Source: Cyanobacteria bacterium FACHB-DQ100 (GTDB lineage: Bacteria; Cyanobacteriota; Cyanobacteriia; Leptolyngbyales; Leptolyngbyaceae). Taken from it: a stretch of 64,000 nt of DNA. The stretch is from the NCBI GenBank assembly GCA_014695195.1, contig JACJNW010000011.1:124001-188000 (forward strand), given 5' to 3'. This document shows, in pieces, positions 107-9,471 of the stretch. The first letter of the stretch is position 1. The number at the start of each line of letters is the position of its first letter. The notes beneath the pieces were generated by a model. That model was given only the letters and a program-made list of their open reading frames with translations, searched no databases and was not told the origin of the DNA. The position numbers and the translations under genes are program-made.

Positions 107-1066
107 ATGCTGAGTTGCTCTATTCCTGTTACAGTCATTACTGGTTATCTTGGGTCAGGCAAAACAACACTGCTGAATCATCTTCTGCATCATGAACACG
201 GTAAAAAAGTTGCTGTGATTGTGAATGAATTTGGGGACGTAGGCATTGATAGTCAGCTTGTGATGGATGCTGATGAAGAAATTTTAGAAATGAACAATGG
301 CTGCATTTGTTGTACAGTTCGGGGGGATTTAATTCGGATTGTTGGTAACTTAATGGAGAAGCGCGAGAAGTTTGATCACATTGTGATTGAAACCACTGGA
401 TTAGCTGATCCAGCCCCAGTCATTCAATCCTTTTTTGTCGATGAAACAATGCGATCTAAAACGCAGTTAGATGCCGTTGTTACGGTTGTTGATGCGAAAT
501 ATATTTGGGAGCATTGGGATAGCAATGAAGCGCAAGAACAAATTGCGTTTGCCGATGTTATTCTGCTCAACAAGATTGATCTCGTTTCTGCTGAACGGCT
601 CGGAACGTTAGAACAGCGAATTCGGTCAGTGAATGCCTTTGCCAAACTCTACCGGACTCACAACTGCAATCTTGAGATCAGTTCGATTTTAGGAGTGAAA
701 GCGTTTGACCTCAAAAATGCTTTATCAATTGATCCAGAGTTTCTCAACGAATCAGCGCATGAGCATGACGAGACTGTTTTCTCAGTCTCGATCGTTGAGC
801 CTGGGGTTGTAAACAGCGACAAACTCACAACCTGGTTAAATCAACTCGTCCAGATTCAAGGTCAAAACATCTTTCGGATGAAAGGCATTTTGAATGTAGA
901 CGATGAGGATCGACGGTTTGTACTTCAGGGGGTGCATATGTTGTTAGACGGCAGACCGGGGCGACCCTGGAAATCCGACGAACTGCGGAGGAATGAGATG
1001 GTGTTTATCGGGCGAGAGTTGCCAGAAGCAGAACTCAAAAGCGGCTTCCAATCATGTCTGGTCTAG
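107..1066 (+). CDS. CobW/COG0523-family GTPase, probable metallochaperone for nitrile hydratase
   Basis: G3E-family P-loop GTPase that delivers a metal ion to a client using GTP. Visible are the Walker A loop GYLGSGKT (residues 13-20), the family metal-binding motif GCICC (65-69), a DxxGLADP switch region, the guanine-specificity motif NKID and a C-terminal CobW_C domain ending near a GRPW sequence. At 319 aa it has the usual family length. It is the first gene of a plus-strand run leading into nitrile hydratase genes, so the likely client is that cobalt enzyme. Zinc or general cobalt handling are the alternatives. The family call is firm; the client is inferred from neighbours. Confidence 0.9.
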   Translation: MLSCSIPVTVITGYLGSGKTTLLNHLLHHEHGKKVAVIVNEFGDVGIDSQLVMDADEEILEMNNGCICCTVRGDLIRIVGNLMEKREKFDHIVIETTGLADPAPVIQSFFVDETMRSKTQLDAVVTVVDAKYIWEHWDSNEAQEQIAFADVILLNKIDLVSAERLGTLEQRIRSVNAFAKLYRTHNCNLEISSILGVKAFDLKNALSIDPEFLNESAHEHDETVFSVSIVEPGVVNSDKLTTWLNQLVQIQGQNIFRMKGILNVDDEDRRFVLQGVHMLLDGRPGRPWKSDELRRNEMVFIGRELPEAELKSGFQSCLV

Positions 1067-1113
1067 ATTTTGCAGCAAGAACATAACCTCATCTATCAGT
1101 AGGATCTGATGAT

Positions 1114-1629
1114 ATGAAAAAGCTAGATGCGTACAGTGTCAGTATTGGGGTGCTAGGTGCGATCGATACTCATCTCACAGCGACACTCATTCTTGTCCCC
1201 GTGTGGGTAACGTTTATTGCTTGGGCATCGTTCTTTATCCTGGGAGGTAAGTCTTCAGGGCTTAAACAGAGCATTGCGTCTAATCTAACGGGAATCGCGA
1301 TCGCATCTCTCACGCTTCTGGCGATCGCAGCTTTGGGAAGTAACCCTCTAATTGTTGCAATCTGTGTTGGACTTGGCAGCGCGGCAATGGTGCAAGCTTC
1401 AAAAGTTCCTTTATTGAGAGCAATTCCGGCGATCGTTTGGGGGTTTGCTTCCACGGTTGGAACCACGATCGCGACCGACAAAGCAATTACAACTCCAGGA
1501 CTAGAAAATCCAGCACTCGTTGCAGCAGCAGCGATGATTTTAGGCGGAGTTTTCGGTTATCTATCAGAGATTTGGGGCGAAGCGATGACGACACAAGGCG
1601 TTCCCACGAGAGAGCAAACTCGCGTCTAG
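1114..1629 (+). CDS. DUF1097-type integral membrane protein
   Basis: A 171-aa hydrophobic protein with about five membrane segments rich in Ala, Ile and Gly, and a short polar C-terminus. Its pattern resembles DUF1097 inner-membrane proteins, whose biochemical role is unknown. It lies between the CobW-type GTPase and the nitrile hydratase beta subunit with short gaps on the same strand, so it is probably co-transcribed. A role in uptake of the substrate or the metal is possible but only inferred from position. The ATG at 1114 is the first good start and lies 47 bp after the preceding stop. Confidence 0.75.
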   Translation: MKKLDAYSVSIGVLGAIDTHLTATLILVPVWVTFIAWASFFILGGKSSGLKQSIASNLTGIAIASLTLLAIAALGSNPLIVAICVGLGSAAMVQASKVPLLRAIPAIVWGFASTVGTTIATDKAITTPGLENPALVAAAAMILGGVFGYLSEIWGEAMTTQGVPTREQTRV

Positions 1630-1665
1630 GCAAGCCGTGGATCATTTACACAGAGAAGAATCAAG

Positions 1666-2385
1666 ATGAAACTACAGCACTACATTGGTGGAATTGAAGG
1701 ATTAGCACCTTCTAGCTTTGAAAAACGGGTATTTGTTCAACCCTGGGAAAAACGCATCTTTGGCATTCACGTTGCCATGATGGGATTAAGTAACCATCTA
1801 GACGCAGTTAAAACTGTCCCGACTCGGTTTAAGAGCTTTTGGACTTGGGGGCATCTGCGTAAAGGTGCTGAAGGGATGAATCCCTTTGACTATTTCAAGT
1901 ACCGCTACTATGAAAAGTGGTTGGGTGGAATTTCTGGCTTTTTTGTCGAATCAGGCTATGTTTCCAAAGAGGAGCTTGATGCAAAAACGACCGCCTATCT
2001 AGAAAAGCCAGATGCGCCCTTGCCTCAAGGTGGAGAACCCGCGATCGACAATCAAGTGATCGAGTATTTGCGGATTGGAGATTCGCCCAAATGTGAGGTT
2101 GATATTCAGCCCAAGTTCAAAGTGGGTGATGTGGTCACTGTCGGAAACCCGCCGCCAACGGAGCATTGCAAACTGCCAGGGTATCTACGAACCAAAAAAG
2201 GCGTAATTGATGTAGTCTATCCAGGCGCTTACAACTATTACTTTCCAACGGGAGATGGCGTAGGCGATCCGATGCCTATTTATAACGTCAAATTTGATTC
2301 TCATGAGATTTGGGGCAATTTGACTGAGCCGAAAACGTGGATCTATGTGCAAATTTTTGAAGCTTATCTAGAAGATCCAGCTTAA
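1666..2385 (+). CDS. nthB: Nitrile hydratase subunit beta
   Basis: Beta subunit of nitrile hydratase, which hydrates nitriles to amides as an alpha/beta complex in the cytoplasm. The 239-aa protein begins with the characteristic MKLQHYIGGIEGL segment. It contains the conserved stretch around NPFDYFKYRYYEKW, and its C-terminal SH3-like barrel includes FKVGDVVTVGNPPP and the TRxPGYLR-like region. The gene precedes the alpha subunit, the beta-then-alpha order typical of cobalt-type enzymes such as those of Rhodococcus rhodochrous J1; iron-type operons are usually alpha-first. The length and conserved blocks suggest an intact subunit. Confidence 0.93.
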   Translation: MKLQHYIGGIEGLAPSSFEKRVFVQPWEKRIFGIHVAMMGLSNHLDAVKTVPTRFKSFWTWGHLRKGAEGMNPFDYFKYRYYEKWLGGISGFFVESGYVSKEELDAKTTAYLEKPDAPLPQGGEPAIDNQVIEYLRIGDSPKCEVDIQPKFKVGDVVTVGNPPPTEHCKLPGYLRTKKGVIDVVYPGAYNYYFPTGDGVGDPMPIYNVKFDSHEIWGNLTEPKTWIYVQIFEAYLEDPA

Positions 2386-2415
2386 CTTCTGTGGAACTGA
2401 TAAAGGACAGGAATC

Positions 2416-3024
2416 ATGACTGAAAGTATTGATCGCGAAACTTATAGTGCTGCTCGTGTGAGGGCGTTGGAGTCGCTCCTGATTGAAAAAGGAATTATCA
2501 CCAGTGAAACTGTTGATAAGGTCGTTGAGTTCTTTGAAAAGGACATGGGGCCATTTAACGGCGCGAGAATTGTGGCAAAAGCCTGGATTGACCCAGAGTT
2601 TAAGCAGAAACTATTAGAGGATACGCCATCCGCGATCGCATCAATGAATTTCCCACGTGGTATGGCAGGAGCAGAAGGCGAACACATGAAAGCTGTGGAG
2701 AACACACCAGAGGTTTATAATCTGATTGTTTGCACGATGTGTTCTTGCTATCCTTGGCCCGTTTTAGGATTGCCGCCCTACTGGTTCAAAGATCCAACCT
2801 TCCGCGCCAGAGCCATTCGCGAACCTCGAAAAGTATTGCAAGAGTTTGGTCTAGACGTTCCTGACTCCACTGAAATTCGAGTTTGGGATACGAGTGCCCA
2901 GATTCGCTGGTTTGTATTGCCAGAACGTCCCACAGGAACCGAGGATTGGACTGAAGAACAGCTTGCTGCGATCGTCACTCCCGAAGCAATGCAGGGTGCA
3001 GCAAAAGTAGTTGTCCCAGCTTAA
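2416..3024 (+). CDS. nthA: Nitrile hydratase subunit alpha, cobalt type
   Basis: Catalytic metal-binding subunit of nitrile hydratase. The metal claw reads VCTMCSCY, with Cys106, Cys109, Ser110 and Cys111. Thr after the first Cys and Tyr after the last Cys are the signature of non-corrin cobalt enzymes; iron enzymes have Ser and Thr there. In the family the second and third cysteines are oxidised to sulfinic and sulfenic acids. At 202 aa the length is normal. The gene starts 30 bp after nthB, with an AGGA-type ribosome site near 2405. Thiocyanate hydrolase gamma is related, but the full-length single beta subunit next door favours nitrile hydratase. Confidence 0.94.
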   Translation: MTESIDRETYSAARVRALESLLIEKGIITSETVDKVVEFFEKDMGPFNGARIVAKAWIDPEFKQKLLEDTPSAIASMNFPRGMAGAEGEHMKAVENTPEVYNLIVCTMCSCYPWPVLGLPPYWFKDPTFRARAIREPRKVLQEFGLDVPDSTEIRVWDTSAQIRWFVLPERPTGTEDWTEEQLAAIVTPEAMQGAAKVVVPA

Positions 3025-3041
3025 AAACCTTGGAGGATCAG

Positions 3042-3386
3042 ATGCACGTCAAGTTTGAACAGTTCGCGGCAGCCAGTATGCTGGTTGATCCGAATGCACC
3101 CCCTCGAAATAACGGAGAACTGCTATTTGAAAGGCATTGGGAAGGACGCGCTTTTGGCATGGCGATCGCGCTCTCGAAGAAAGGTCACTACGAGTGGGAA
3201 GAGTTTCGCCAGCAATTAATCGCCTCGATCGCAGAGTGGGAAGCCACGCATTGTAAGGATGATCCAGACTGGGATTATTACCAGCGTTGGTTGTTGGCAC
3301 TAGAGCGACTAGCGTTGGACACGAATTTAATTTCGCTAGAAGAGCTAGAGCAACGAACGACTGAATTGGTAAAAGATTGCTTCTAG
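3042..3386 (+). CDS. Nitrile hydratase accessory (activator) protein
   Basis: A small 114-aa protein related to the N-terminal part of the nitrile hydratase beta subunit. It has the RNNGELLFERHWEGRAFGMAIAL and WDYYQRWLLALERL regions typical of the accessory family; NhlE, NhhG and P14K belong here. Such proteins carry the alpha subunit during cobalt insertion and exchange it into the apoenzyme. The start is placed at ATG 3042 because a GGAGG lies at 3032-3036, five bases upstream. The upstream in-frame TTG at 3030 would put the start before that site. It follows nthA by 17 bp and is almost certainly in the same transcript. Confidence 0.9.
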   Translation: MHVKFEQFAAASMLVDPNAPPRNNGELLFERHWEGRAFGMAIALSKKGHYEWEEFRQQLIASIAEWEATHCKDDPDWDYYQRWLLALERLALDTNLISLEELEQRTTELVKDCF

Positions 3387-3425
3387 TTCTTCCGTTAAAC
3401 AACACGCATGATCTGTGAGGGATGA

Positions 3426-4118
3426 ATGATTCAACACTGTAAGGCTTCTCGATTCACTGCTTTCAACCAAAGTATTCAGACAAAAGGGTTCATTGTTCTA
3501 AGCGCCATGAGTGTGCTGCTCATGACTTCTCCAGCAATGGCGCATCATCCAATGGACGGGAAAACGCCGAGTAACTTCTGGGAAGGATTTTTGTCAGGAT
3601 TAGCACATCCCTTGATTGGTGTCGATCACTTTGCTTTTATCGTGACGATCGGGTTATTAGCAGCCGTAAAACGACAAGGAGCGGCAATCCTATTCGCTTT
3701 TATGGGGTCTGCGATGGGCGGAACCGGGTTACATCTTCTCGGTTTCAATTTTGCAGGAATTGAACTATTGATCTCCGGAACAATCCTGCTATTTGGCTTT
3801 CTGCTGACTCAAAAGAACGATTTGAAAGCAATCACTGTCCTGAGTGCGATCGCGGGCGTGTGTCATGGATATGCTTACGGCGAAGCGATCGTGGGGGCAC
3901 AGATGACTGCCGTATTCGCATATTTATTAGGTTTCACTGGCATTCAGTTGTGTATCGCGGCGATCGCCTCTAGACTAGGCAAAGCGTTGCTGACACGCTC
4001 TGGACAACCGCAATTTTTCGACAGCTTACGATCGACGGGGTTCGTAGTTTGTGGGATTGGAATCTCGCTTCTGTTCTCTCAGATTGTAGATGTCTCTGTC
4101 TCATTCCTAAAAGGGTAA
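3426..4118 (+). CDS. HupE/UreJ-family metal permease, probably cobalt uptake
   Basis: Membrane protein of the HupE/UreJ family, secondary permeases for nickel or cobalt. It shows the family motif HPLIGVDH after an N-terminal hydrophobic stretch ending in TSPAMAHH that looks like a cleavable signal peptide with a His-rich mature end. About six further membrane helices follow. Translation may start at the internal methionine at residue 27 (MSVLLM), because residues 1-26 are polar and precede the signal-like core. As last gene of the nitrile hydratase run, with no hydrogenase or urease genes nearby, cobalt is the likelier substrate. That substrate is an inference. Confidence 0.85.
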   Translation: MIQHCKASRFTAFNQSIQTKGFIVLSAMSVLLMTSPAMAHHPMDGKTPSNFWEGFLSGLAHPLIGVDHFAFIVTIGLLAAVKRQGAAILFAFMGSAMGGTGLHLLGFNFAGIELLISGTILLFGFLLTQKNDLKAITVLSAIAGVCHGYAYGEAIVGAQMTAVFAYLLGFTGIQLCIAAIASRLGKALLTRSGQPQFFDSLRSTGFVVCGIGISLLFSQIVDVSVSFLKG

Positions 4119-4157: not shown

Positions 4158-4439
4158 TCAGAACAAAGCCAATCTAGAAGGTTGACCAGTTTCCGACTCA
4201 TTACCGTCGAGCGCGTTGAGAGTCTTGATCAATGCGGCTTGGTTTTGTTGCAGTGAATGCAGCCGTGAATGGGTCGCATCTAAGCCCGAAGCCTGTGAAT
4301 TTGGCAGTAAAAGCGTTGAACATATTGCCTGCTGGCAGTCCCCCGATGGGTAGAGAAAATCAGTATTAACCCAGCGCGTTAAAGTTCCATTGGGTGCGGC
4401 TTGGATCAAATCAGCATTAACGGTTGCAACAACGATCAC
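4158..4439 (-). pseudogene. Orphan reading frame, possible gene remnant
   Basis: Unrecognised. The 93-codon stretch begins at a GTG and encodes a protein-like sequence with patches such as VIVVATVNADLIQ and RWVNTDFLYPSG, a CQQAIC pair and a Gln-rich helical tail. The frame stays open upstream to at least about 4535, past the stop of the amidohydrolase gene, and adds SANLPVERTKVTLL and GLNLLLFQGVTTFED without any good start codon. This looks like the 3' part of a gene that lost its beginning, perhaps when the neighbour arrived. It could also be a chance open frame. No ribosome site was found. Confidence 0.3.
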
Positions 4440-4513
4440 ATCTTCAAACGTTGTGACTCCCTGAAATAATAAGAGATTTAATCCTGATGTCAGTAGTGTA
4501 ACTTTGGTTCTTT

Positions 4514-5875
4514 CTACAGGTAGATTAGCTGATGTGCTAATCGATTGTGTTCCTCGATCAAAGTCGGAAGATCAATCGTAGTGATTTGTCCTTGATCAAC
4601 AATCTTTCGACCATTGATAAAACTATAGTCTACAGTATTGACCTGGCAGAAAATCAGTGCTGCTACTGGATCGTGAAGCGCCCCTGCAAACTCCGGTCGA
4701 TCGAGATTGATGGCAATGAAATCGGCTGACATTCCCGGTGCTAGATAACCAATGTCGTCACGCCCTAAAACCTTTGCGCCTCCAAGCGTTGCCAGTTCTA
4801 GCGCCTCCCGTGCCGTCATTGCAGCAGCATCTAACTCTCGGACTCGTGCCATTAAAAATGCAGTCCGGGCTTCATTCAAGAGATTCGAGGTGTCATTTGA
4901 GGCGGAGCCATCAACCCCTAAGCCCACGGGAACATTATGATGAAGCATCTTACGAATCGGCGCCAGCCCGCTTGCAAGTCGCATATTACTACAAGGACAA
5001 TGCGCCACTCCAGTTCCAGTTTTGCCAAACTGTTGAATCGCTTTATCGTCTAGCTGCACACAATGCGCGTGCCACACATCAGAACCAATCCAACCCACTG
5101 AGGCTGCATAGTCTCCAGGGGTCATACCAAAGGTCGCCAAGCTGTACTCAACATCAGAGTTGTTCTCAGCCAAGTGAGTATGTAATCGAACACCGGAGTA
5201 CGATCGTGCCATTGCTGCCGATTCTCGCATTAAGTCTTGCGTTACAGAGAACGGAGAACAGGGTGCAAGCGTAATCCGTAACATTGCATGACGATCGTTG
5301 TCATGATATTGCTCAATCAATCGTTGGCTATCTTTCAAAATATCTGCTTCTTTTTCTACTACCGAATCTGGCGGCAGTCCTCCCTGACTTTCCCCCACGC
5401 TCATGCTGCCCCGACTGGCATGAAACCGCAGCCCAACCACTTGCACTCCCTGAATTTCATCATCAAGCGTACTACCATTCGGATAGATATAGAGATGATC
5501 GCTTGCGGTTGTACAGCCTGATCGAATTAGCTCAACGGCTGCCATCTGAGCGCTGATATACACGGCTCTTGGAGTGAGCTTTGCCCAGATTGGGTAAAGA
5601 GTTTGCAGCCATTTGAACAAGTCACAGTTCTGAGCGGCGGGAACAGCACGGGTGAGCGTTTGATAGAAGTGGTGATGTGTATTGACAAGACCGGGAAGCA
5701 CCACAGCCCGATCGCTCAAGTCTAATACTTCATCTGCGGTTTGCGGTAGTTCTGCTGTGGCTCCAACTTGCTCGATTACATTGTCTCGAATGAGCATTGC
5801 TGCATTGCGAATTTCCCGTCGGGTTTCATCCATTGTCACTAAGGTATGGATGTTTTTAACAAGCAAGGTAGGCAT
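4514..5875 (-). CDS. Amidohydrolase, 8-oxoguanine deaminase / TrzN-AtzA type
   Basis: Zinc-dependent amidohydrolase of the cytosine deaminase-like clan. It has the PGLVNTHHHFYQTLTR metal-binding strand, the RSGCTTASDHLY loop, HTHLAEN, HAHCVQLD, HCPCSNMRLASG and GLGVDGSASND motifs in the expected order. This set matches proteins annotated as 8-oxoguanine deaminase, related to atrazine and triazine hydrolases. The start is placed at MPTLLVKN (5875), which opens the composite beta-sandwich. The 27 upstream in-frame residues look non-coding. The exact substrate cannot be read from sequence; guanine-like purines are most likely, releasing ammonia. Confidence 0.85.
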   Translation of the reverse strand: MPTLLVKNIHTLVTMDETRREIRNAAMLIRDNVIEQVGATAELPQTADEVLDLSDRAVVLPGLVNTHHHFYQTLTRAVPAAQNCDLFKWLQTLYPIWAKLTPRAVYISAQMAAVELIRSGCTTASDHLYIYPNGSTLDDEIQGVQVVGLRFHASRGSMSVGESQGGLPPDSVVEKEADILKDSQRLIEQYHDNDRHAMLRITLAPCSPFSVTQDLMRESAAMARSYSGVRLHTHLAENNSDVEYSLATFGMTPGDYAASVGWIGSDVWHAHCVQLDDKAIQQFGKTGTGVAHCPCSNMRLASGLAPIRKMLHHNVPVGLGVDGSASNDTSNLLNEARTAFLMARVRELDAAAMTAREALELATLGGAKVLGRDDIGYLAPGMSADFIAINLDRPEFAGALHDPVAALIFCQVNTVDYSFINGRKIVDQGQITTIDLPTLIEEHNRLAHQLIYL

Positions 5876-6066
5876 AAGATTCGATGCGTTTGATTGACAG
5901 CAATGAGCGATCTCTAACTGTTCAAGACTCACACCTATTAAGTTGTTAAGTGTCAAACTGTTTGATCATGCTGTCGTCCAGAATTACAGCCTTTTCCAAG
6001 CAGGTTTTTAATCTTCAGCAATTCTTTAACATCAGATCGAAAAAAGATACTAATCCAAGATGATCG

Positions 6067-6105
6067 GGTGTTCACCAAGCTTTGAAGAAGATTGCTTGGC
6101 AAACA
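6067..6105 (-). terminator. Hairpin downstream of cphB
   Basis: GTGTT/AACAC outer and CCAAGC/GCTTGG inner arms are separated by a symmetric two-base bulge and close a 13-base loop. It lies about 30 bp after the cyanophycinase stop on the minus strand. There is no clear T-run, so it is a weak terminator or an mRNA 3' end stabiliser. Confidence 0.4.
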
Positions 6106-6137
6106 CCATAAACACTTCGTAGTTAACTAAAGATAGA

Positions 6138-6980
6138 TTAATTAAAGATGGGCGATCGCTTCTCCAAATCGAATTTGTAGCCACTCGGCAGCACATGAAG
6201 CGTTGCACCACAAAACGCTAAATCCTCGTCCGGTAACAATGCTTCAATGTTATTGTGTACCACCGTAGATTCATCGACGATCGTCACTGCACCCTCGCCG
6301 ATCACTTCTACAATCTTGCCGTTGACGACGATCGCAGTATTTTCATCAATTCCAAAGCCCAGACTGGCAGGCTGTTGCGCCAAAGCGGAAAGCAATCGTC
6401 CTAAACGTCCGCGCTGTGCGAAGTGTTGATCAATCACCACATTCGGCAAAAATCCCATGCCGCGATCCATCTCAGCCACTTCGCGTCGTGGATTGGTTTC
6501 ACCTTCACCGACCACAATCATCATATCGGGCATCATTGCTGCACCTGCGCTGGTTCCCGCGATCACAGCACCTTCGGAGAAGCGTTTGTGTAGCATTGCT
6601 TCGAGTTCTGTATCTTTGAGGCATTCTGTAATCCGGGCTTGATTGCCTCCGGTAAAAAAGATTCCGGTCGCTTGGGTAACATCCTCGATCGCTTTTGGAT
6701 CACCGGCATCATCACGGTGTGCAGTATCAACCACTCTGACATCTTCTGCACCCAAGCGGCGAAAAATTCCAATATATTGTTCTCCAACTTCGCCCGGTAA
6801 TCCGGTTGCAACCGTCATCACTACAATGCGTGACTGAAGCCCGCCCGCACGGCGCACAAATTCCCGCAGAATCTTACATTCTCCTTCTTTGTCTTCTGCA
6901 CCCCCAATAATCACAAGTTCTCCATGTGTTTCTGGCAGTGCTACGCTCTCTTGGGCTTGAGTGTCAACCTGACTCACCAT
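6138..6980 (-). CDS. cphB: Cyanophycinase
   Basis: Peptidase family S51 exo-enzyme that degrades cyanophycin to beta-aspartyl-arginine dipeptides in the cytoplasm. The nucleophile elbow GTSAGA is at residues 142-147 (Ser144). It also has the N-terminal ELVIIGGAEDK strand, the IFFTGGNQARI segment, RREVAEMDRGMGFLPN, and the DQHFAQRGRLGRLL and GFGIDENTA motifs conserved in CphB. The 280-aa length is typical. A small conserved gene and a CphA2-type synthetase lie next to it, making a local cyanophycin recycling module. The dipeptide released is the known substrate of CphA2 enzymes. Confidence 0.95.
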   Translation of the reverse strand: MVSQVDTQAQESVALPETHGELVIIGGAEDKEGECKILREFVRRAGGLQSRIVVMTVATGLPGEVGEQYIGIFRRLGAEDVRVVDTAHRDDAGDPKAIEDVTQATGIFFTGGNQARITECLKDTELEAMLHKRFSEGAVIAGTSAGAAMMPDMMIVVGEGETNPRREVAEMDRGMGFLPNVVIDQHFAQRGRLGRLLSALAQQPASLGFGIDENTAIVVNGKIVEVIGEGAVTIVDESTVVHNNIEALLPDEDLAFCGATLHVLPSGYKFDLEKRSPIFN

Positions 6981-7536: not shown

Positions 7537-9471
7537 ATGAACGGAAATCTTATGGTGCTCGATCGCGTGTCTGAAGTTAGCCGAGTCAATGCAAGAAAGA
7601 CGGATGCGTTTGACATCTTCAACATTCGCTATTACATGGGTGCAAATCCGTATCTATCAACGGCAGCGACTGTATTTGATTTTGCACAAACTGAAAATCA
7701 AAGTGTTCTGCCGTTAGAAAAGTATGCGAATGCCATCAGCGATCGCTATCCTCATTTCTACGAGATCTCGTTCAAATCTCATGCTGATTTATTCGCTCAA
7801 ACGGTCGCCCACCTGAGCCAGCTTGAGATGGAACTGCATTTACAGCATTGGAATCTGAAAGCTTATCCAAAGTTTGATCGAATTGCGATCGAAACGCTAC
7901 ACGCTCGTACCAGTCGAGAAATTATCTTTTCAGCCTGGGATTGGTTTGAGGCAATTACACAAGGGCGAGATTTCGAGATTGGTGATCATATTGAGGTGCT
8001 ACAGGCACAGTTTCGTCGATCGACCTATGGCGGCCCTACAGTTTATGCACTGCTGAAGTCGGCGCATTCCCAGGGAATTCCCGCTTTCTATTTGTGGGAT
8101 GAAGGCTTGATGCAATATGGATATGGTCGTAAGCACGTTCGAGGGATTGCAACTACGTTTGATGGTGATAGTCATCTTGATTCAGATTTCACAACGCGCA
8201 AAGATGACTGTAAAGCATTCTTGAGTACACTAGGCTTTCCGGTACCCAAAGGAAGAATTGTGAGTACCTTCAAAGAAGCTCAAAGTGCAGTCGATCGACT
8301 AGGCTATCCGGTTGCAGTCAAGCCTGTGGTTGGACATAAAGGCATTGGTGTTACTGCAAATATTCGCAGTGATGAAGACTTAGAAGCCGCCTTCGATCGA
8401 GCAGTAGATGCCGTTGAACCGGAGCATCCGGTGGAAATCATTGTTGAGCAGAGCATTGAGGGCAGTGATTTTCGATTGTTGTGTGTAGATGGTAAGTTTG
8501 TTGCCGCAACTGAGCGCCGTCCGGCTTCAGTGATTGGAGACGGTAAATTAACCATTTCAGAACTTATCGCTCGTGCGAATCGCTCTAGTGAACGTAGTGA
8601 TACTCCGACTTCACCGCTTGGAAAAATTAAAGTTGATGATGCAATGGAGCGGTACTTAACTGAGCAAGGCTTTTCATTAGACAGTGTGTTAGAGCGCGAT
8701 CGTGAAGTTTATCTCCGCAAAGTTGCCAACCTTTCTTCAGGCGGGCTGAGCATCGATGCCACTTCAAACATTCACCTGGATAACATTGTTTTAGCGCAAG
8801 ATGTCGCTCAACATTTTCGCTTGACTTGCTTAGGAATTGATATCATTACTCGCGATTTGAGTCGCTCTTGGAAAGAGGGCAACTTTGCAATCATTGAGAT
8901 TAATGCAGCTCCGGGTGTGTTTATGCACATGAAGCCCTCTGTGGGTCAAAGTGTTGATGTCACCACTCACATTCTCAGAACATTCTTTCATGCAGGGGAT
9001 ACTGGTCGCATCCCGATCATTACGTTCAATCGCGTCACCCTTCCAGAACTACAAGAAGCGATCGCTTATATTCTCCGGCATCATCCGCACTGGACGATTG
9101 GAGCCGTCTGTCAAGATGGAGTATTGATCAATCACTCTGAAAAACCCTTGCACTCAGACTACAACACCAATGTTCAAAATCTCTTGCGGCATCCGAAGCT
9201 AGATTTGCTGATTGCTGAATATCCTGAATCAGTTCTCGATCGCGCTGGAATGTTCTACACCAATAGCAATCTGGTGATTTTGAATGATCCCACTGACATT
9301 GAAATGATGCTGACGCGGGACATCTTTGAAGATACGAGAGTGGTGATTAAGCAGGGAAGTACGGTTTCAACTCAGCATCAAGGATTGATCGAACAATTCT
9401 CGCTGAGTGCAGCAGAAGGATTCAGCCGCGTTTATCTAGAAGCGATCGCCGCACTGATCCTACCTGCTTAA
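7537..9471 (+). CDS. cphA2: CphA2-type cyanophycin synthetase, short form without Mur-ligase P-loop
   Basis: A 644-aa relative of cyanophycin synthetase; classical CphA1 is near 875 aa. It keeps an N-terminal region and a full ATP-grasp domain (about 222-482), with GFPVPKGRIV, YPVAVKPVVGHKGIGV, IVEQSIEGSDFRLLCVDGK and the end motif IIEINAAPGVFMH. After this, CphA1 enzymes have a Mur-ligase nucleotide site of the GTNGKTT type. Here the sequence runs TGRIPIITFNRVTLPE with no such loop, followed by a shortened Mur-like remnant. This is the layout of CphA2, which polymerises beta-Asp-Arg dipeptides with one ATP site. The divergent cphB next door supplies that substrate. Confidence 0.88.
   Translation: MNGNLMVLDRVSEVSRVNARKTDAFDIFNIRYYMGANPYLSTAATVFDFAQTENQSVLPLEKYANAISDRYPHFYEISFKSHADLFAQTVAHLSQLEMELHLQHWNLKAYPKFDRIAIETLHARTSREIIFSAWDWFEAITQGRDFEIGDHIEVLQAQFRRSTYGGPTVYALLKSAHSQGIPAFYLWDEGLMQYGYGRKHVRGIATTFDGDSHLDSDFTTRKDDCKAFLSTLGFPVPKGRIVSTFKEAQSAVDRLGYPVAVKPVVGHKGIGVTANIRSDEDLEAAFDRAVDAVEPEHPVEIIVEQSIEGSDFRLLCVDGKFVAATERRPASVIGDGKLTISELIARANRSSERSDTPTSPLGKIKVDDAMERYLTEQGFSLDSVLERDREVYLRKVANLSSGGLSIDATSNIHLDNIVLAQDVAQHFRLTCLGIDIITRDLSRSWKEGNFAIIEINAAPGVFMHMKPSVGQSVDVTTHILRTFFHAGDTGRIPIITFNRVTLPELQEAIAYILRHHPHWTIGAVCQDGVLINHSEKPLHSDYNTNVQNLLRHPKLDLLIAEYPESVLDRAGMFYTNSNLVILNDPTDIEMMLTRDIFEDTRVVIKQGSTVSTQHQGLIEQFSLSAAEGFSRVYLEAIAALILPA

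What the first reader, a model, noticed from the sequence alone, without database searches (positions are those of the whole stretch)
107..4118. Self-contained cobalt-type nitrile hydratase cluster in a cyanobacterium
Seen: CobW GTPase, DUF1097, nthB, nthA with CTMCSCY, accessory protein, HupE-type permease, all on one strand with short gaps. Known: the Thr/Tyr claw and beta-alpha order are cobalt-type features; activator proteins load cobalt by subunit swapping; HupE proteins move Ni or Co; CobW proteins chaperone metals. Inferred: a HupE-plus-CobW cobalt supply replaces the NhlF-type transporter found in Rhodococcus. DUF1097 in such a cluster is unexplained and no amidase is adjacent.
Basis: partly seen in the sequence, partly recalled or inferred. 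Interest (0 to 1): 0.6.

Follow-up and report, generated by a model that had tools for sequence, protein, structure and literature searches.

The report
Cobalt nitrile hydratase with dedicated chaperone
A cyanobacterial gene cluster encodes a probable cobalt enzyme that turns nitriles into amides, and it appears to carry its own cobalt importer and its own GTP-driven metal chaperone, a chaperone type described so far for the iron form of this enzyme.

Summary
In detail: six same-strand genes (window 107-4118) encode a COG0523 GTPase, DUF1097, nitrile hydratase beta and alpha (CTMCSCY), an NhlE-type accessory protein and HupE. Of 46 related loci 44 have the GTPase, 34 HupE, 24 DUF1097. The GTPase is not CobW proper; its general cyanobacterial paralogues form a clade of their own, and no COG0523 gene was found in 37 other NHase loci. 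Reviews assign GTPase chaperones to iron-type enzymes, so a cobalt-motif enzyme with one is a variant that breaks that rule. HupE here lacks the B12 riboswitch seen at 17 of 20 other HupE loci; the one B12 riboswitch found in this genome precedes cbiMN. 'No amidase adjacent' is a window-edge artefact: formamidase fmdA and fmdB lie just upstream, same strand. DUF1097, a six-helix membrane protein, was found in 2 of 386 cyanobacterial genomes, both at NHase. Likely role: nitrogen from small nitriles via amide to ammonia, with cobalt supply kept apart from B12. Metal content and substrate are untested.

The parts
107..1066 (+). COG0523 GTPase of the NHase-linked kind (GCICC motif); proposed GTP-dependent cobalt chaperone
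   Evidence: PF02492 1.8e-62, CobW_C 6.4e-24; below CobW/YjiA/ZigA cut-offs; groups with NHase-linked rows, outside the clade of the general paralogues
1114..1629 (+). DUF1097 six-helix membrane protein; proposed small-solute channel or permease
   Evidence: PF06496 5.4e-34; AlphaFold2 mean pLDDT 87, six helices; found in 2 of 386 cyanobacterial genomes, both NHase-adjacent
1666..2385 (+). nthB, nitrile hydratase beta subunit
   Evidence: TIGR03888 210.8 bits, cut-off 152.2; chains labelled cobalt 62-103 bits, 1ahj/2ahj/4fm4-type chains about 40 (that these last are iron enzymes is recalled)
2416..3024 (+). nthA, nitrile hydratase alpha subunit, CTMCSCY metal site
   Evidence: TIGR01323 298.9 bits, cut-off 249.85; chains labelled cobalt 229-304 bits, 1ahj/2ahj/4fm4-type chains 190 or less (iron identity recalled)
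3042..3386 (+). NhlE/P14K-type accessory protein (ATG start; a TTG at 3030 is possible)
   Evidence: TIGR03889 74.1 bits, cut-off 46; present in 46 of 46 clade loci
3426..4118 (+). HupE/UreJ permease, proposed cobalt importer without a B12 riboswitch; the only PF04955 match found in this genome
   Evidence: PF04955 1.9e-33; one match in G000; no riboswitch in L004 at gathering score; HPLIGVDH in the translation

Best explanation
The cluster encodes a cobalt-type nitrile hydratase with its own cobalt supply line, used to obtain nitrogen from small nitriles. HupE brings in Co(II); with no B12 riboswitch, B12 should not shut it off, while this genome's B12 cobalt goes through riboswitch-controlled CbiMN and a separate true CobW. 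The COG0523 GTPase takes up Co(II) at its CXCC site and hands it, with GTP hydrolysis, to the alpha subunit or to the NhlE-type accessory protein, which completes loading by subunit swapping. The enzyme hydrates the nitrile to an amide; the formamidase just upstream (fmdA, with fmdB) can release ammonia from formamide-like products. DUF1097 is most likely a membrane channel or permease for the nitrile, the amide or another small nitrogen compound. Shown here: gene content, order, conservation, the split of the GTPase from its general paralogues, the motif, the scatter of the HupE copies on their tree, the riboswitch contrast. Inferred: metal identity, direction of metal transfer, substrate, regulation, DUF1097 role.
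For: Linkage: GTPase in 44 of 46 clade loci (one of them, L018, a fragment at a contig start); the two lacking it are cut off 103 and 0 bases upstream of alpha; accessory 46 of 46; HupE 34 of 46. No COG0523 protein at E <= 1e-5 in 37 other NHase loci; the same profile gave 46 hits in the clade loci, from which it was largely built. The 20 sampled general paralogues fall in one clade (SH-aLRT 99) that holds no NHase-linked row except two long-branch ones; six columns separate 44 NHase-linked from 20 general sequences fully, and divergence is highest in the C-terminal domain. HupE copies at NHase do not form one group: 9 changes of the label on the best tree, at least 3 forced by supported branches, which fits repeated recruitment. 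B12 riboswitch on the same strand upstream at 17 of 20 other HupE loci, at 0 of 13 NHase-cluster loci and none in L004. The one riboswitch found in G000 precedes CbiM-CbiN; its true CobW is elsewhere (514.6 bits, cut-off 332.1). Motif C[ST][LM]CSCY in 55 of 55 alpha proteins from 44 of the 46 loci, second NHases included. Nitrogen: in Arthrospira PCC 8005 nthA, nthB, fmdA and cynS rise on nitrogen depletion (PMC4509649, passages); GTAN8TAC sites lie upstream of 13 of 41 clade clusters against 2.5 expected from shuffles; FmdA at E <= 1e-50 in 20 of 35 NHase genomes against 14 of 194 sampled. HupE is reported as a cobalt transporter in Synechocystis (PMC7689651, PMC4284471, passages).
Against: No metal or activity data. 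On the GTPase tree the general clade branches from among the NHase-linked rows, so the NHase-linked GTPases are not one clade (3 changes, 2 forced; quick tree, long outgroup). The comparison set of 37 NHase loci showed no CSLCSCT (iron) motif, and no authentic Nha3 was used, so the profile's power to find Nha3 is untested. HupE is missing at 12 of 46 loci and DUF1097 at 22 of 46, some on short contigs, so neither is essential next to the enzyme. The HupE label changes may include losses as well as gains. fmdA is near in only 2 of the 46 relatives (L006, L035). No exact NtcA-type site was found upstream of the window's own fmdA or GTPase gene, nor in L006. The FmdA contrast does not correct for kinship or genome size. 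The one riboswitch rests on 150 scored of 193 candidates. GCICC does not tell the metal, and the general paralogues have it too. Whether the Arthrospira NHase belongs to this clade was not tested.
Confidence: 0.66

Rival explanations
1. The COG0523 GTPase is an iron (Nha3-like) or zinc chaperone; the enzyme is loaded with iron, or the GTPase serves general zinc economy and merely rides in the operon.
For: The COG0523 activators described for NHase are iron-type (PMC2770081; PMC9164220, passages). The closest solved protein is YjiA, and proteins related to CobW are reported to prefer zinc (title of PMC7895991). Its general paralogue occurs without NHase, and branches from among the NHase-linked rows.
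Against: All 55 alphas read carry the cobalt form of the site and none the iron form CSLCSCT; alpha and beta score higher with chains labelled cobalt; the NhlE-type accessory is in 46 of 46 loci; the partner transporter family imports Co or Ni (PMC4284471, PMC7689651, passages); the NHase-linked GTPases differ from the general group at six columns.
Confidence: 0.2
2. The cluster is an ordinary cobalt-type NHase operon; GTPase, HupE and DUF1097 are neighbours kept by descent or by shared regulation with no joint role.
For: Order varies among relatives (12 arrangements, truncated loci included), and HupE, DUF1097 and fmdA are each absent from many loci.
Against: GTPase linkage has no clear exception in 46 loci from Cyanobacteriota and Pseudomonadota; HupE copies at NHase are scattered over the HupE tree; DUF1097 was not found in the other 384 of 386 sampled cyanobacterial genomes.
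Confidence: 0.14
3. HupE here supplies nickel, not cobalt, for another enzyme.
For: Some HupE/UreJ members lie in hydrogenase and urease clusters and are taken to import nickel (PMC4284471, passages).
Against: Placement beside a cobalt-motif enzyme at 34 of 46 loci; the cyanobacterial relatives that I sampled mostly have a B12 riboswitch (17 of 20), which points to cobalt.
Confidence: 0.07

Closest known systems
Cobalt-type NHase operon of Rhodococcus rhodochrous J1 (nhlBA, NhlE-type activator, NhlF transporter)
   Same: Beta-alpha order, cobalt motif, NhlE-type accessory protein, a linked cobalt permease.
   Different: HupE/UreJ permease instead of NiCoT-type NhlF; an added COG0523 GTPase; DUF1097. 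(The J1 gene layout is recalled; NhlF and NhlE are named in the passages.)
Nha3/P44K/P47K (NhpC) activators of iron-type NHase
   Same: COG0523 GTPase with CXCC encoded beside NHase subunits.
   Different: Nha3 was reported exclusively with iron-type NHase, which is said to be assembled differently from the NhlE-dependent cobalt type (PMC2770081); here the motif is cobalt-type and an NhlE-type protein is present too. Sequences were not compared.
Cyanobacterial hupE-cobW pair
   Same: HupE beside a COG0523 gene, a likely cobalt supply unit.
   Different: That pair carries true CobW in the two cases tested (TIGR02475 494 and 490 bits), and 17 of 20 sampled HupE loci have a B12 riboswitch; the NHase cluster has another kind of COG0523 protein and no riboswitch.
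NHase genes of Arthrospira/Limnospira PCC 8005 (nthE, nthA, nthB)
   Same: Cyanobacterial NHase with an activator gene, raised on nitrogen depletion along with fmdA and cynS (PMC4509649; PMC8400943; passages).
   Different: Locus numbers in PMC8400943 run nthE, nthA, nthB; no GTPase or HupE is mentioned in the passages seen. Its sequence was not compared here.

Membership tests
Nitrile hydratase (alpha/beta) | Alpha and beta subunit models above curated cut-offs | tested here: met
   TIGR01323 298.9 (249.85) and TIGR03888 210.8 (152.2); thiocyanate hydrolase gamma model not reached, 186.4 (291.45)
Cobalt-type NHase | Metal site CTLCSCY rather than CSLCSCT | tested here: met
   CTMCSCY in the window; C[ST][LM]CSCY in 55 of 55 alphas read
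Cobalt-type NHase | NhlE-type accessory protein beside the subunits | tested here: met
   TIGR03889 74.1 (46); 46 of 46 loci
Cobalt-type NHase | Cobalt bound in the purified enzyme | not testable with these tools
   needs metal analysis
CobW (cobalamin biosynthesis) | TIGR02475 equivalog score above 332.1 | tested here: not met
   226.6 bits; this genome's true CobW elsewhere scores 514.6
Nha3 iron-type NHase activator | COG0523 protein with CXCC encoded beside NHase | tested here: met
   GCICC; GTPase at 44 of 46 loci
Nha3 iron-type NHase activator | Partner enzyme is iron-type | tested here: not met
   cobalt motif in 55 of 55 alphas read; metal itself not measured
Nha3 iron-type NHase activator | Sequence kinship with Nha3/P47K | not tested
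   no Nha3 sequence was fetched; no COG0523 protein turned up in the 37 other NHase loci
HupE/UreJ permease | PF04955 above cut-off and HPXXGXDH motif | tested here: met
   115.9 bits (23); HPLIGVDH; motif from PMC7689651
Formamidase FmdA (upstream of the window) | NF045496 equivalog above 500 | tested here: met
   671.1 bits
DUF1097 / YcdZ | PF06496 above cut-off | tested here: met
   117.9 bits (24.6)
ALMT-like channel fold (DUF1097) | Fold match well above unrelated rows | tested here: inconclusive
   Best Z 9.3 to 7voj_A, rmsd 4.2, 156 aligned; next other fold Z 7.3; Foldseek E 0.22

The most novel reading that the evidence does not exclude
A second route of NHase maturation: in a clade of cobalt-type NHases a dedicated COG0523 GTPase acts as a GTP-dependent cobalt chaperone together with the NhlE-type swapping protein, fed by a HupE importer that has escaped B12 control, so that cells split cobalt between B12 and a nitrogen-scavenging enzyme; DUF1097 is the membrane gate for the nitrile or amide.
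Probability: 0.42. Interest if true: 0.66.

Novelty: new variant of a known kind. Interest (0 to 1): 0.52.

Why it matters
[quoted passage not shown] A clade where a cobalt-motif enzyme travels with a COG0523 GTPase at nearly every locus would break that rule, give a further cobalt-handling COG0523 group besides CobW, and offer a simple in vivo test of how a chaperone's metal is chosen. It also suggests a cell that separates two cobalt budgets by regulation: CbiMN under a B12 riboswitch versus a HupE without one. NHase is an industrial enzyme whose cobalt loading is a practical concern, so a better maturation set could be useful.

Tried and rejected
Considered and dropped: (1) Thiocyanate hydrolase: gamma model below its cut-off. 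(2) A B12 riboswitch in the cluster: none in L004 at gathering score. (3) The second PF02979 hits of this genome (contig C44) as another NHase: they are an NHLP leader peptide. (4) The FGE-like protein (PF03781), at 14 loci, as the enzyme that oxidises the active-site cysteines: the copy that I read (L044) starts with a Tat-like signal, so it is probably exported, and it matches PvdO only below the cut-off. (5) Strict exclusion of DUF1097 and the FGE-like protein: 0 of 45 tree rows have both, but only 2 independent pairs lie on supported branches, so the pattern is not significant (L036 and L042 were set by hand as having DUF1097). (6) A UreI/AmiS-type channel fold for DUF1097: no such match among the rows shown, which is no evidence of absence. 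(7) NtcA control of the window's own genes: no exact site upstream of fmdA or the GTPase. (8) The accessory protein against solved structures: no match at E <= 0.001.

Selections that affect counts. One search kept the best 80 of 88 loci; the 46 clade loci are those with alpha at 64% identity or more, and L028 and L057 are cut off at the 5' side. Gene presence means a tblastn match over 45 bits on alpha's strand within 6 kb (fmdA: over 200 bits anywhere in the locus). The 20 general GTPase loci and the 20 other HupE loci were picked by me from the top parts; for HupE I left out the highest-scoring group and the weak Nostoc-type hits, so 17 of 20 is not a random sample; G121, G170 and others give two loci each. 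The 13 NHase-cluster loci were picked, out of 34 with HupE, to fit the size limit. FmdA: I sent 36 of the 46 loci as handles (one, L015, was not held), and counted E <= 1e-50 in both searches; one search lists 30 of 35 at E <= 0.001, mostly distant family members. NtcA: 41 loci with the GTPase and at least 200 bases upstream. GTPase trees left out proteins under 250-280 residues (such as the L018 fragment) and L133, which repeats L016. In one search the two L047 rows and the L024 second copy, that is the long-branch rows, are not in the count. The 37 other NHase loci are 34 plus L134-L136. Families of clustered neighbours were tested on one member each.
Full report
What is there. Window 107-4118 holds six same-strand genes with gaps of 17-47 bases: a COG0523 GTPase, DUF1097, nitrile hydratase beta and alpha, an accessory protein and HupE. 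Family models confirm each. The alpha site reads CTMCSCY. Alpha and beta both score higher with solved chains labelled cobalt than with 1ahj/2ahj/4fm4-type chains, which I recall as iron enzymes.

What the window edge hid. The window begins 106 bases before the GTPase gene. The own genome (contig C11) shows, on the same strand, a formamidase (FmdA_AmdA 1.1e-189; NF045496 671 bits against a cut-off of 500) ending 530 bases before the GTPase, and between them an FmdB-family zinc ribbon (L004 9644-9904). So an amidase is adjacent. Further upstream on the other strand are an OsmC protein, an acyl-CoA dehydrogenase-like protein and an ABC transporter whose ATPase is of nitrate type (TIGR01184 314.5 bits, cut-off 291.8). 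Downstream on the minus strand come an 8-oxoguanine deaminase and cyanophycinase.

Conservation. One search kept 80 of 88 confirmed loci. In 46 of them the alpha subunit belongs to this clade (64% identity or more). Within these, the GTPase is present at 44, beta at 44 (the exceptions, L028 and L057, are cut off upstream), accessory protein at 46, HupE at 34, DUF1097 at 24, and fmdA within the held flanks at 2. Seventeen have the exact order of the window. The clade is mostly Cyanobacteriota but includes Pseudomonadota (Granulosicoccus, Cellvibrionaceae, Nitrosomonas). It is rare: full NHase alpha appears in 6 of 386 sampled cyanobacterial genomes, and three of those (G014, G312, G133) hold divergent alphas (34-47%) without the GTPase nearby. 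The other PF02979 hits are short; I read them as NHLP-type leader peptides, tested only in the own genome.

The GTPase. It misses the CobW, YjiA and ZigA equivalog cut-offs (226.6 of 332.1, 248.6 of 361, 198.1 of 600). Relatives are widespread: 131 of 386 genomes have a match at E <= 1e-60, and more than 80 of the listed matches are at least 60% identical. In a tree of 80 rows the 20 sampled general paralogues form one clade (SH-aLRT 99), which holds no NHase-linked row except two long-branch ones. That clade branches from among the NHase-linked rows, so the latter are not one clade on this quick tree. The window protein sits with NHase-linked rows, and no other copy at E <= 1e-60 was found in its genome. 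Six alignment columns separate 44 NHase-linked from 20 general sequences completely, and divergence is highest in the C-terminal domain. A profile found no COG0523 protein in 37 other NHase loci, and gave 46 hits in the clade loci from which it was largely built; those 37 loci showed no classical iron motif, so they do not test Nha3. A survey says that Nha3-type GTPases go exclusively with iron-type NHase (PMC2770081, passages), and a review that cobalt-type enzymes do not appear to need a GTPase chaperone (PMC9164220, passages). My searches listed no paper that, by title, abstract start or the passages I opened, describes a COG0523 GTPase or HupE with cobalt-type NHase; Edmonds 2021, a COG0523 review, was not held.

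HupE and cobalt. HupE is reported as a cobalt transporter in Synechocystis, and some cyanobacterial copies as B12-riboswitch controlled (PMC7689651, PMC4284471, passages). Of 20 other HupE loci that I picked, 17 have a cobalamin riboswitch on the same strand upstream of hupE. Of 13 NHase-cluster loci none has, nor has L004; the other NHase loci with HupE were not scanned. HupE copies at NHase are scattered over the HupE tree: 9 changes of the label on the best tree, at least 3 forced by supported branches. Repeated recruitment is the simplest reading, but losses could account for part. In this genome the cluster HupE is the only one found; the one B12 riboswitch found (150 of 193 candidates scored) precedes CbiM-CbiN, and true CobW lies elsewhere. 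I read this as two separate cobalt budgets.

DUF1097. In the cyanobacterial sample it occurs in 2 of 386 genomes, both within 1 kb of nthA. The model has six helices at mean pLDDT 87. The best solved match is the plant channel ALMT1 (Z 9.3, rmsd 4.2, 156 aligned), only modestly above other folds (Foldseek E 0.22), so the fold is unsettled. The E. coli relative YcdZ has been proposed as a transporter in the CytR regulon (PMC3454398, passage), and a relative sits before preTA and hydA in Anaerostipes (PMC11036815, passage). A permease or channel for a small nitrogen compound is the best guess.

Nitrogen role. In Arthrospira PCC 8005, nthA, nthB, fmdA and cynS all rise on nitrogen depletion (PMC4509649, passages and table); whether that NHase belongs to this clade was not tested. 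NtcA-type GTAN8TAC sites lie upstream of 13 of 41 clade clusters against 2.5 expected, but not upstream of the window's own genes. FmdA matches at E <= 1e-50 occur in 20 of 35 genomes with this NHase and in 14 of 194 sampled genomes, at least two of which (G000, G005) also have the NHase; kinship is not corrected for. Cyanate lyase is near the cluster in 4 loci, and this genome has one elsewhere.

Verdict. This is a real, conserved variant of the cobalt-type NHase operon. The strong new point is the COG0523 GTPase beside a cobalt-motif enzyme at nearly every locus of the clade; the riboswitch-free HupE supports a private cobalt supply. Metal identity, substrate and the DUF1097 role remain inference.

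Noticed in passing
L022, L023, L024, L025, L026, L030, L033, L037, L040, L043, L044, L046, L048, L058, upstream of the GTPase or nthB: At 14 loci that lack DUF1097 a protein of one cluster (PF03781, FGE/PvdO-like, in the member tested) takes a similar place; the L044 copy has a Tat-like start. No locus has both.
   Followed up: partly
L007, L008, L024, L027, L029, L031, L033, L036, L038, L041, L042, L043, L132: A second, divergent NHase lies in the same region (alpha before beta in most; cobalt motif where read). Ten of these loci also have some of: isochorismatase-family hydrolase, AsnC-type regulator, NMT1-type ABC transporter.
   Followed up: partly
L118, L119, L120, L123, L125, L127, L128, L129, L131: hupE followed on the same strand by a CobW-like gene, with a B12 riboswitch upstream of hupE (the two tested, L119 and L125, are true CobW); an earlier survey said cyanobacterial cobW is not regulated by a B12 riboswitch (PMC2770081).
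   Followed up: partly
L026 2-433, L030 2-433, L032 4349-4792, L034 1106-1549: Cyanate lyase genes (L032 copy tested) near the NHase cluster; in L032 and L034 close to ABC transporter genes related to those upstream of our window.
   Followed up: partly
L005 5301-5969 (G000 contig C44): NHLP leader-peptide precursor (TIGR03793 132 bits) beside a large LanM-like protein, a radical-SAM-like protein and two ABC-type transporters: a probable RiPP locus (the neighbours are my reading of the sequences).
   Followed up: partly
window 6138-6980 (-) and 7537-9471 (+): Cyanophycinase next to a 644-residue cyanophycin synthetase-like protein well below the synthetase cut-off, possibly a CphA2-type short form (CphA2 name recalled).
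   Followed up: partly
L108 (G121), 4342-6206: HupE next to the general type of COG0523 GTPase, beside ABC transporter genes related to those upstream of our window, in a genome where no NHase was found.
   Followed up: no
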